From Candidatus Hydrogenedentota bacterium (GTDB lineage: Bacteria; Hydrogenedentota; Hydrogenedentia; Hydrogenedentales; JAEUWI01): a stretch of DNA of 52,763 bases. Numbering within the stretch: the first letter of the stretch is position 1; each line of letters begins with the position of its first letter. Positions 69 through 52,763 of the stretch are shown here, in pieces. The notes under the pieces were generated by a model. That model was not told the DNA's origin and made no database searches. It saw only the letters and a list, made by a program, of their open reading frames with translations. A program made the position numbers and the translations under genes. The stretch lies in contig JACPGE010000009.1 of assembly GCA_016182605.1 (NCBI GenBank), positions 1 through 52,763 on the forward strand. The letters run 5' to 3'.

Positions 69-100
69 CCAATCACGACGCTCGTCGAGCGACGTGCTAC
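69..100 (-). repeat. REP-like palindrome, subtype A, copy 1
   Basis: This 32-bp imperfect palindrome has the core CGCTCG-T-CGAGCG with flanking CACG/CGTG arms. The same sequence, with few changes, recurs at 23853-23884, 24393-24424 and 52501-52532. A reverse-oriented version lies at 52067-52098 inside a MITE-like element. No gene is visible in 1-224, which holds only this copy and the GTCCCC element at 146-220. Confidence 0.75.
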
Positions 101-23744: not shown

Positions 23745-23852
23745 GGGTAGTCTGGCGCGACAGTGGCCCGGGTAAACAGCCGCGCTGGTGCGTTACGGCG
23801 AGACTACATTTCCGATGGCGCCCCTGCATGCGGCAGGCCGTGCGCGTTGAGG

Positions 23853-23884
23853 CCAATCACGACGCTCATCGAGCGACGTGCTAC
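23853..23884 (-). repeat. REP-like palindrome, subtype A, copy 2
   Basis: A 32-bp palindrome as at 69-100, with one change (CTCATCGAG instead of CTCGTCGAG). It lies in the first 301-bp direct repeat. Confidence 0.72.
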
Positions 23885-23996
23885 TTCGGAGGCACGGACG
23901 TTTGATTCAACGATGGGTGGTCTGAAGTAGCCGATTGATCGAAAAGCGCAAGAATTGCTGGTCAGACCATCCGGATTGCGCACGAACAGCACCGCG

Positions 23997-24075
23997 CTGG
24001 GGACAGCCCCTCGCCGGCACACGACGGTGCTGCGGAGTTAAGAACACCCACACCCGGCGGGGACAGCCCCCTCGA
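23997..24075 (-). repeat. GTCCCC/CCGG element, copy in first direct repeat
   Basis: An inverse-oriented homologue of 146-220, bounded by CTGGGGACAGCCCCTCGCCGG and by CCGGCGGGGACAGCCCCCTC. Its interior differs (ACACCCACAC tract). Confidence 0.65.
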
Positions 24076-24255: not shown

Positions 24256-24287
24256 AAGTAGCCCTTCGCTCGACGAGCGTAGGGATT
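24256..24287 (+). repeat. REP-like palindrome, subtype B, copy 1
   Basis: A 32-bp palindrome reading AAGTAGCCCTTCGCTCGACG and then AGCGTAGGGATT. It shares the CGCTCG-A-CGAGCG heart with subtype A but has AAGG/TAGG flanks. Its only other copy is at 52018-52049. Confidence 0.65.
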
Positions 24288-24392
24288 GATGGTAAACCAC
24301 CCGAACTGCACACGAACAGCCGCGCTGGTACGTTACTGCGAGACTTCATTTCCGATGGCGCTCCTGCATGCGGCAGGCCGTGCGCGTTGAGG

Positions 24393-24424
24393 CCAATCAC
24401 GACGCTCATCGAGCGACGTGCAAC
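24393..24424 (-). repeat. REP-like palindrome, subtype A, copy 3
   Basis: Carried in the second 301-bp repeat; it ends CAAC instead of CTAC. Confidence 0.7.
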
Positions 24425-24536
24425 TTCGGAGGCACTGACGTTTGATTCAACGATGGGTGGTCTGAAGTAGCCGATTGATCGAAAAGCGCAAGAATTGCTG
24501 GTCAGACCATCCGGATTGCGCACGAACAGCACCGCG

Positions 24537-24615
24537 CTGGGGACAGCCCCTCGCCGGCACACGGCGGTGCTGCGGAGTTAAGAACACCCACACCCGGCGG
24601 GGACAGCCCCCTCGA
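24537..24615 (-). repeat. GTCCCC/CCGG element, copy in second direct repeat
   Basis: Differs from 23997-24075 at a single position. Confidence 0.65.
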
Positions 24616-51220: not shown

Positions 51221-51589
51221 TTGCCGGGCATGCGATCATGTTGAAGGCCAAGGAGGGGAAGAGGGGAAGAGGAGATCTCTCACTTCGTTCGAGATGACAG
51301 GGGGGAGGGAGGATAGGAGGGGTAGGAGATTGCTCACTTCGTTCGGGATGACAGCGGGGGAGATGACAGGAGGAGGGCTCAACGGAAACCAAGGCCTACT
51401 TTGCGGCTTGCGTCTTTGCGTGAATTCCCTTCCTGGGATCGCTGAGTTGCACTCGGCTTTGATCCCTTGCCCCCATTTGCGTTCATCCGTGTTCATTCGC
51501 GGCTGGACTTCTTCAAGTAGACCGCGAATGAACGCCAAGGCACGCGAATAAGAAATGAAGAACGCGCTCGATTTGAGACCCGAAGGACG
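51221..51589. other. spacer with short and dispersed repeats
   Basis: No gene. Two copies of CTCACTTCGTTCG-GATGACAG lie at about 51279-51300 and 51333-51354. The second copy of the 139-bp dispersed repeat is at 51415-51553. Confidence 0.55.
51415..51553 (-). repeat. dispersed 139-bp repeat, copy 2 (inverted)
   Basis: The reverse-oriented partner of 31569-31707; see there. Confidence 0.82.
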
Positions 51590-51870
51590 CTACAGCCGCG
51601 CGTGACGCCAGTGAAGGTACGGGGCATCGAACAGGTGTGTGCGGCCGATGGTCCTCGAAAGCGATTCCTTGGTTTCAGGTACCACGACCAGATGCACATG
51701 GTTCGTCATGCGGCAGACACCGCCAATCCATGCTGCCGCGCGCTCTCCCGCAACGACGCCAAATAATGCCGGCGGTCGCCATCGCGAGGAAGACCTCCTG
51801 GCGGGTAGTTGCCTCGCTGCGTCACGTGATGGGCCACGCCAGGGAGGGCGATGCGCACTTGTCTTGTCAT
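51590..51870 (-). pseudogene. decayed REP-associated tyrosine transposase (Y1 family)
   Basis: The minus strand from the ATG at 51870 reads MTRQVRIALPGVAHHVTQRG, the normal start of IS200-like REP-associated transposases. It then loses frame around the RGN-R-QEVF block and recovers at GDRRHYLASLRESARQHGL. It shifts again just before MTNHVHLVVVPET, which contains the HxH metal-binding motif of this family. The homology stops after SLSRTIGRTH, before the usual C-terminal half with its catalytic tyrosine, and a stop follows at 51590. Two frameshifts and a truncation make it inactive. REP-like palindromes start 148 bp away. Confidence 0.75.
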
Positions 51871-52017
51871 GGGAGAAGGCTATTATAAAGGCCGAGAATC
51901 CGCAATAAATGGTTACTGTCCCGAATGGCGCTAACTTTTCGCGTGGTATCGAGTTCGGGTGCGGACTTCAAGACTTTCTGCCTGGTTGATGGGGTTCAGG
52001 AGGGTGCTTCGACGCGG

Positions 52018-52049
52018 AATGCCTACGCTCGGCGAGCGAAGGCCTACTT
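52018..52049 (-). repeat. REP-like palindrome, subtype B, copy 2
   Basis: Homologous to 24256-24287 in reverse, with core CGCTCGGCGAGCG; the left half of the inverted pair in the MITE-like element. Confidence 0.68.
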
Positions 52050-52066
52050 TGGTGGCAGGCCTGATG

Positions 52067-52098
52067 GTAGCACGCTGCTCGCCGAGCGGCGTGATTGG
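52067..52098 (+). repeat. REP-like palindrome, subtype A, in MITE
   Basis: GTAGCACG then GCTCGCCGAGCGG then CGTGATTGG; the reverse complement of copies 1-3 with compensating changes that keep the palindrome. Confidence 0.72.
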
Positions 52099-52144
52099 GG
52101 TGAGACTGCAAAACTTAGCGCCATTCGAGACAGTAACCATTTAT

Positions 52145-52763
52145 CGTTTCCTTGGCCCCCCGCTGGTGTTTGGCCGGCGGGTTCGGGGATTCTTGTCGGG
52201 GCTTCCCTTGGGGCGTTCACGCGGAAGTGCACGCACCGCTTTGCCGAGCCAGGAAAAAAATTGGGACAATAGCCAATTATTGCGCCAACACAGAGGTCTA
52301 TTTCAACAAGAACCAGAACAAAGTACGATAGCAGCATGCGTCCCGAGGCGCCCGGGGCTTCCCTACGGGATTTGCCGGGCTCTGCCCTTGGCCCTCTGCG
52401 TTTTCTTCGTGTGCTCCGTGGTCCGCGAAGCGCCTGGGTCCTCCAGTCTACGACTTGGTTGGGGCAATCTTGTTTGCGGCAGGCCATGGGTGTTGGCGCG
52501 TCAATCACGACGCTCGTCGAGCGACGTGCTACTTTAGAACGCGTGTTCAGAACGCGTTTGGATTGCGGGGTGACGGAATGCGGGAGGATGAGAAGCTTGG
52601 GTGGGTGGAAGTGCGTGAAGGTGTCCCGGGTACATCCATGATAGGTAGAAGTCAAGCAGCAGAGCAGGCGTTCTGCCACCGCTGTTCTTGAGTACCGGGC
52701 GTGTTGTGCCGTAAGTGGATGATAGGGGAAGCCTTAGGCGGCGTTCGTGCAATAGGGCGTCGA
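52145..52763. other. terminal spacer without recognisable genes
   Basis: These 619 bp, up to the window end, show no gene I can support. They hold one REP subtype A (52501-52532). A CGTGTGCTCCGTGG motif near 52410 is an inverse relative of the one near 31470. Confidence 0.5.
52501..52532 (-). repeat. REP-like palindrome, subtype A, copy 4
   Basis: Nearly identical to 69-100 (one change, T for C at the first base) in the same orientation, at the other end of the window. Confidence 0.75.

What the first reader, a model, noticed from the sequence alone, without database searches (positions are those of the whole stretch)
51905..52144. 240-bp MITE-like element carrying a nested REP inverted pair
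Terminal inverted repeats of 30 bp match at 29 positions and enclose no gene. They do enclose one subtype B and one subtype A REP palindrome in inverted orientation, the layout of a REPIN. A decayed REP-type transposase lies 34 bp away. The element joins two scales of inverted repeat that are usually described separately.
Basis: seen in the sequence. Interest (0 to 1): 0.62.

Follow-up and report, generated by a model that had tools for sequence, protein, structure and literature searches.

The report
IS4-type mini-transposon carrying a REPIN
This is one of at least 40 copies of a small non-coding transposon that carries a second, unrelated kind of repeat (a REP pair) inside it; the carrier copies have drifted apart while the REP pair has hardly changed, which suggests that something maintains the REPs separately.

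Summary
The element is a 204-bp MITE (51923-52126), not 240 bp. It has 17-bp terminal repeats (GAATGGCGCTAACTTTT, one mismatch) and at least 40 related copies in this genome. Many full copies are flanked by 11-bp direct duplications resembling GGGACWGTCCC. Ends and duplication length fit subgroup IS4 of the IS4 family; an intact relative in the same phylum (G015) has matching ends and a perfect 11-bp duplication, and two unassembled IS with related ends break 12 contig ends here.

They are the ends of two tandem TIRYT-type Y1 transposase remnants that meet at the insertion point. The decayed gene is one of these, not the REPs' partner. The likely partner is an intact RAYT at C110:57767, bordered by REP-B copies identical to this one.

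The surprise: in 24 full copies both REPs differ from consensus at 2.5% of sites, against 17% in arms, spacer and terminal repeats; an arms-only search agrees. A second MITE family carries one near-invariant REP-B, and hybrids join at REP-B. Best reading: an IS4-type transposase spreads the MITE with its REPIN passenger, and a REP-specific process keeps the REPs intact.

The parts
51923..52126 (+). MITE-1 element (204 bp), true ends
   Evidence: ends set by aligning copies and by the 11-bp duplication peak
51923..51939 (+). left terminal inverted repeat GAATGGCGCTAACTTTT
   Evidence: fits the published IS4-subgroup end -AATR--------WTW (PMC2266710)
52110..52126 (-). right terminal inverted repeat, one mismatch to the left
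52018..52047 (-). REP-B, GTAGGCCTTCGCTCGCCGAGCGTAGGCATT
   Evidence: identical to REPs beside RAYT-1 at C110:58277 and 58596; DNA hairpin z -3.5
52067..52096 (+). REP-A, GTAGCACGCTGCTCGCCGAGCGGCGTGATT
   Evidence: DNA hairpin z -3.05
52048..52066 (.). spacer between the REPs, as variable as the MITE arms
   Evidence: about 19% divergence from consensus against 2-3% in the REPs
51912..51922 (.). left 11-bp flank GTTACTGTCCC, two mismatches to the target consensus GGGACWGTCCC
52127..52137 (.). right 11-bp flank GAGACAGTAAC; inverted (10/11), not direct (6/11), copy of the left flank
51593..51870 (-). N-terminal remnant of a TIRYT-type Y1 transposase, with its 5' end repeat up to 51922
   Evidence: tblastn with the intact C126 gene, two frames, 66% and 53% identity
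52156..52272 (-). C-terminal remnant (39 aa) of a second TIRYT-type Y1 gene; its 3' end repeat lies at about 52127-52144

Best explanation
The element is a non-autonomous MITE mobilised in trans by an IS4-subgroup DDE transposase acting on GAATGGC... ends. It inserts into GGGACWGTCCC-like sites, some of them ends of TIRtrons, with 11-bp duplications. At some point a GTAG-type REPIN (REP-B/REP-A) was caught inside a progenitor; it now travels as a passenger. After insertion the MITE decays but the two REP hairpins are kept nearly intact by a REP-specific process: most likely RAYT-linked recopying or conversion between REPs, or selection on the hairpins. Shown: copy number, ends, duplications, target preference, matching IS4-family element in relatives, difference in REP and arm divergence, hybrids. 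Inferred: mobilisation in trans, capture of the REPIN, and the cause of REP conservation.
For: 43 matches at E <= 1e-5 in the own genome (a lower bound, since 40 of 127 candidates were scored). The duplication signal peaks at k = 11 only: direct identity 0.70 against 0.46 in the control for MITE-1, with 8 perfect 11-mers among the 30 MITE rows. 40 of 62 flanks lie within 3 mismatches of GGGACWGTCCC, against 0.27% of the background. IS4-family transposase by NCBIfam NF033592, 209.5 bits, cut-off 115, in a 1,861-bp element with perfect 21-bp inverted ends GAATGGCACTTAATTAAG... and a perfect 11-bp duplication ATACCTGTCCC. Two related IS with 100%-identical right ends at 5 and 7 contig ends of the own genome. 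REPs 36/1463 changed sites, rest 536/3136, 24 of 24 copies in the same direction; an arms-only profile search gave the same. MITE-2 REP-B is 99.4% identical pairwise against 88% and 80% in its arms. Hybrids with MITE-2 left arm and MITE-1 right part join at REP-B, clearest in L259. Intact RAYTs at C110 and C83 pass NF047646 and are bordered by REPs.
Against: The autonomous IS is not assembled in this genome; only its right ends are seen, and its ends differ from MITE-1 at about 3 of 17 bases. MITE-1 shares only the end repeats with the IS. The window copy lacks a direct duplication. No second genome carries the family, so no true empty site could be compared. The cause of REP conservation is not resolved by sequence alone.
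Confidence: 0.85

Rival explanations
1. One reading: a 240-bp MITE whose real ends are the 30-bp repeats at 51905 and 52144, tied to the neighbouring decayed REP-type transposase.
For: The 29/30 match is real. One IS copy in G016 (L185) likewise shows a 36-bp extended inverted repeat.
Against: In other copies the outer 13 bp differ and are directly, not invertedly, repeated. The same letters occur without any MITE at both ends of the intact Y1 gene of C126. The Y1 family of the decayed gene is about 26-28% identical to the REP-bordered RAYTs.
Confidence: 0.05
2. The mobile unit is the REPIN, moved by RAYT; the arms are incidental flanks duplicated along with it.
For: REPIN mobilisation by RAYT is the published model (PMC3116915). 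REPs are far better conserved than the arms. Some copies keep little of one arm.
Against: Arms are homologous in 24 copies and end in inverted repeats at an 11-bp duplication. A different MITE with the same kind of ends carries only REP-B. In the 1.2-Mb sample most REP-A/REP-B doublets of this type lie in full or partial MITEs.
Confidence: 0.08
3. REPs stay alike because the host selects for them at each site (terminator, mRNA stabiliser, gyrase site), not because RAYT or conversion acts on them. This competes only with the last step of the best explanation.
For: Changes in REP-B fall mostly in the triloop; GTAG and stem are nearly invariant. Roles of REPs at transcript ends have been proposed elsewhere (PMC3733652).
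Against: Selection would be needed at 24 or more unrelated sites plus the MITE-2 sites. REP-B is identical between the two MITE families and beside RAYT-1, which also suits conversion.
Confidence: 0.35
4. A structured RNA or regulatory element conserved in place.
For: Strong palindromes.
Against: No Rfam match. Copies lie at unrelated loci and are absent from the other six genomes of the family.
Confidence: 0.02

Closest known systems
IS4 family, subgroup IS4, and its possible MITEs (PMC2266710)
   Same: Ends fit -AATR--------WTW, duplication of 11 bp lies within 10-13, related transposase with the YREK signature in the phylum
   Different: Non-coding and carries a REPIN; strong preference for GGGACWGTCCC sites; only the end repeats are shared with the IS
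REPINs and RAYTs (PMC3116915)
   Same: Two GTAG-type REPs in inverted orientation; intact RAYT genes bordered by the same REP type
   Different: Here the doublet is spread inside an IS4-type MITE with its own ends and duplications, not as the mobile unit itself
TIRYT / TIRtrons (PMC3733652, PMC6006769)
   Same: The outer repeats beside the MITE fit the GGGGWSAS motif and border an intact Y1 gene in C126
   Different: They are the landing site, not part of the element
IS elements that insert into REPs, such as ISPpu9 (PMC8450116)
   Same: An IS and REPs found nested
   Different: Opposite nesting: here the REPs are inside the transposon

Membership tests
MITE of the IS4 family (subgroup IS4) | Short non-coding element with terminal inverted repeats, many copies | tested here: met
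   204 bp, 17-bp repeats, at least 40 copies, no conserved frame
MITE of the IS4 family (subgroup IS4) | Direct duplication of 10-13 bp | tested here: met
   k = 11 peak, 8 perfect cases among MITE rows; not met by the window copy itself (6/11)
MITE of the IS4 family (subgroup IS4) | Ends -AATR--------WTW | tested here: met
   GAATGGCGCTAACTTTT read against Table 1 of PMC2266710
MITE of the IS4 family (subgroup IS4) | Autonomous IS4-family element with the same ends in the same genome | tested here: inconclusive
   Right ends and C-terminal coding part at 12 contig ends; complete element only in relatives
MITE of the IS4 family (subgroup IS4) | Mobilised by that transposase | not testable with these tools
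   needs a transposition assay
REPIN | Two REPs with GTAG and hairpin in inverted orientation | tested here: met
REPIN | Cognate RAYT bordered by the same REPs in the genome | tested here: met
   C110:57767, REP-B identical beside it; REP-A differs by a few bases. Cognate by sequence only; binding not tested
REPIN | The doublet itself is the mobile unit | tested here: not met
   unit ends and duplications are those of the MITE
TIRtron (neighbouring Y1 remnants) | Y1 gene bordered by inverted repeats with GGGGWSAS | tested here: met
   intact C126 gene with GGGGACAGTAACTATTTATT before and AATAAATGGTTACTGTCCCC after it; motif from PMC3733652

The most novel reading that the evidence does not exclude
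REP doublets have become long-lived passengers of IS4-type MITEs: the transposon spreads them, dies at each site, and a REP-specific activity (RAYT-linked copying or conversion, or selection) keeps the hairpins intact and lets them serve as exchange points between MITE families. The MITE arms then act as a built-in clock against which REP maintenance can be measured.
Probability: 0.5. Interest if true: 0.7.

Novelty: new variant of a known kind. Interest (0 to 1): 0.5.

Why it matters
Whether REPs are kept by their transposase, by conversion or by the host is an open question, and it is usually hard to say how old a REP copy is. Here each REP pair sits inside a dead transposon whose arms record the time since insertion, so REP maintenance can be measured within one genome. 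It also shows a second route of REP dispersal, by an unrelated DDE transposase.

Tried and rejected
Structured RNA: no Rfam match. Protein-coding element: the frame is open in 4 of 14 copies only. Autonomous transposase in the own genome by PF01609: four hits, none with these ends. Plasmids and viral contigs: no MITE match in plasmids, no REP match in viral contigs. True empty site in relatives: the element is in none of the six other genomes of the family; only MITE-free homologues of the target sequence were seen, at the C126 Y1 gene. Tree of copies with REPs left out: star-like, 1 of 21 inner branches well supported, too weak to prove conversion from the triloop variants. A breakpoint exactly at REP-B between C80 and C110 was set aside because it lies near a contig end. 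A first alignment of MITE-2 mixed orientations and was redone.

Full report
Observation. The inverted arms, the two REP palindromes in opposite orientation and the nearby decayed Y1 gene are all present as described. The 30-bp arms match at 29 positions.

Copies. A search of the own genome (G000, 6.76 Mb in 130 contigs) found 43 matches at E <= 1e-5, with only 40 of 127 candidates scored, so the number is a lower bound. I collected 40 non-redundant REP-B/REP-A pairs of this kind, the window copy included. None of the six other genomes held for the family has the element.

True ends. Alignment of copies shows that homology stops at GAATGGC... on the left and ...GCCATTC on the right, window 51923 and 52126. 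Just outside, many full copies carry direct duplications. Testing lengths 7 to 14, only 11 stands out: mean identity 0.70 against 0.46 in a swapped-flank control for MITE-1, and 0.71 against 0.61 for MITE-2, with eight perfect 11-mers among the 30 MITE rows. Examples are GAGACTGCCCC at C117:79266, GTTACGGTCCC at C24:16659 and AATCCGCTCTG at L020. The sites prefer GGGACWGTCCC: 40 of 62 flanks are within three mismatches, against 0.27% of random 11-mers.

The mobilising family. TIR searches also found a second MITE of about 250 bp (MITE-2) and, at 5 and 7 contig ends, the right ends of two IS that break the assembly. One of these encodes a C-terminal peptide whose relatives in Nostoc plasmids are annotated as IS4-family transposase. 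In the same phylum, G015 holds a complete 1,861-bp element with perfect 21-bp inverted ends and an 11-bp duplication. Its 465-aa transposase scores 209.5 bits on the NCBIfam IS4 model, cut-off 115. Published features of subgroup IS4 are ends -AATR--------WTW and duplications of 10-13 bp (PMC2266710). MITE-1 fits both. Mobilisation in trans is inferred.

The outer repeats and the decayed gene. The intact Y1 gene of C126 has GGGGACAGTAACTATTTATT before it and AATAAATGGTTACTGTCCCC after it. This is the TIRYT arrangement described by Di Nocera and colleagues, with motif GGGGWSAS (PMC3733652). In the window, a C-terminal remnant of such a gene (52272-52156, minus) lies on one side of the MITE and an N-terminal remnant (51870-51593, minus) on the other. 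So the MITE sits where two tandem TIRtron remnants meet, and the outer ATAAATGGTTACTGTC / GACAGTAACCATTTAT repeats are their ends. This explains why the window copy has inverted (10/11) rather than direct (6/11) flanks. Loss of direct duplications by recombination between copies or by adjacent deletion is well known (PMC11708052). A relative in G016 (L185) shows the same effect.

The likely partner of the REPs. Two intact RAYTs, at C110:57767 and C83:17560, are bordered by GTAG REPs and pass the REP-associated transposase model. They are 66% identical to each other and about 26-28% to the C126 Y1 gene. REP-B of the MITE is identical to REPs beside the C110 RAYT; REP-A is a close variant.

REP conservation. 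In 24 copies with a recognisable left arm, REP-B and REP-A differ from consensus at 36 of 1463 sites (2.5%), the arms, spacer and terminal repeats at 536 of 3136 (17%); all 24 copies show the same direction. Thirteen of the 36 changes are in the REP-B triloop. The spacer between the two REPs is as variable as the arms, so this is not a matter of distance from the ends. To exclude a search bias I searched a 1.195-Mb sample with profiles of the arms alone: of 13 left-arm hits at E < 0.01, 12 have REP-B within three mismatches. In nine of these with strong left arms, REPs are 96% identical pairwise, the left arm 75%. MITE-2 shows the same for its single REP-B, 99.4% against 88% and 80%. A tree without the REPs is star-like with long end branches, so the REPs have been kept after the copies separated. 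Sites within copies are not independent, so the Fisher p-value (1e-55) is only a guide.

Hybrids. In L259 a MITE-2 left arm runs into REP-B and continues as MITE-1; parts of L252 and L250 look alike. Exchange by recombination in the shared REP is the simplest reading.

What remains open. RAYT action, gene conversion and host selection all fit the REP conservation. TnpAREP is known to cut single-strand REPs at CT next to the hairpin, with GTAG important for activity (PMC8266576). That would suit the invariance of GTAG and stem, but nothing here shows activity.

Novelty. Papers found on REPINs and MITEs compare the two, but I found none that describes a REPIN inside an IS4-type MITE; subscription journals and preprints were not covered. 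I rate it a new variant of a known kind. The organism could not be named with these tools.

Noticed in passing
window 23775-24074 and 24315-24614: 300-bp direct repeat, 98% identical, spaced 540 bp, containing REP-like palindromes at 23858 and 24398; another REP type GTAGCCCTTCGCTCGACGAGCGTAGGGATT lies between them at 24258-24287.
   Followed up: partly
window 71-100 and 52503-52532: Two REPs of the type found beside the second RAYT (C83), GTAGCACGTCGCTCGACGAGCGTCGTGATT, both on the minus strand.
   Followed up: partly
L089 (C110:57000-59000), REPs at C110:58213-58622: Three tandem REP doublets with a period of about 160 bp directly downstream of RAYT-1, a BIME-like array.
   Followed up: partly
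L252 (C8:1700-4200): Cluster of MITE-2 and MITE-1 pieces in tandem, with hybrid arms.
   Followed up: partly
G000 C117:17338-19243 (in L201): A 1.9-kb stretch with MITE-1 right arms at both ends and several decayed REPs inside, perhaps a composite or rearranged cluster.
   Followed up: no
window 51270-51305 and 51324-51359: Two copies of a 36-nt repeat (CTCACTTCGTTCGAGATGACAG type), 89% identical; similar text recurs beside other MITE copies.
   Followed up: no
L185 (G016:C264), 797-832 and 2666-2701: IS4-type element whose inverted repeat extends to 36 bp because the flanks are inverted copies of GGGACAGTATA; no direct duplication.
   Followed up: partly
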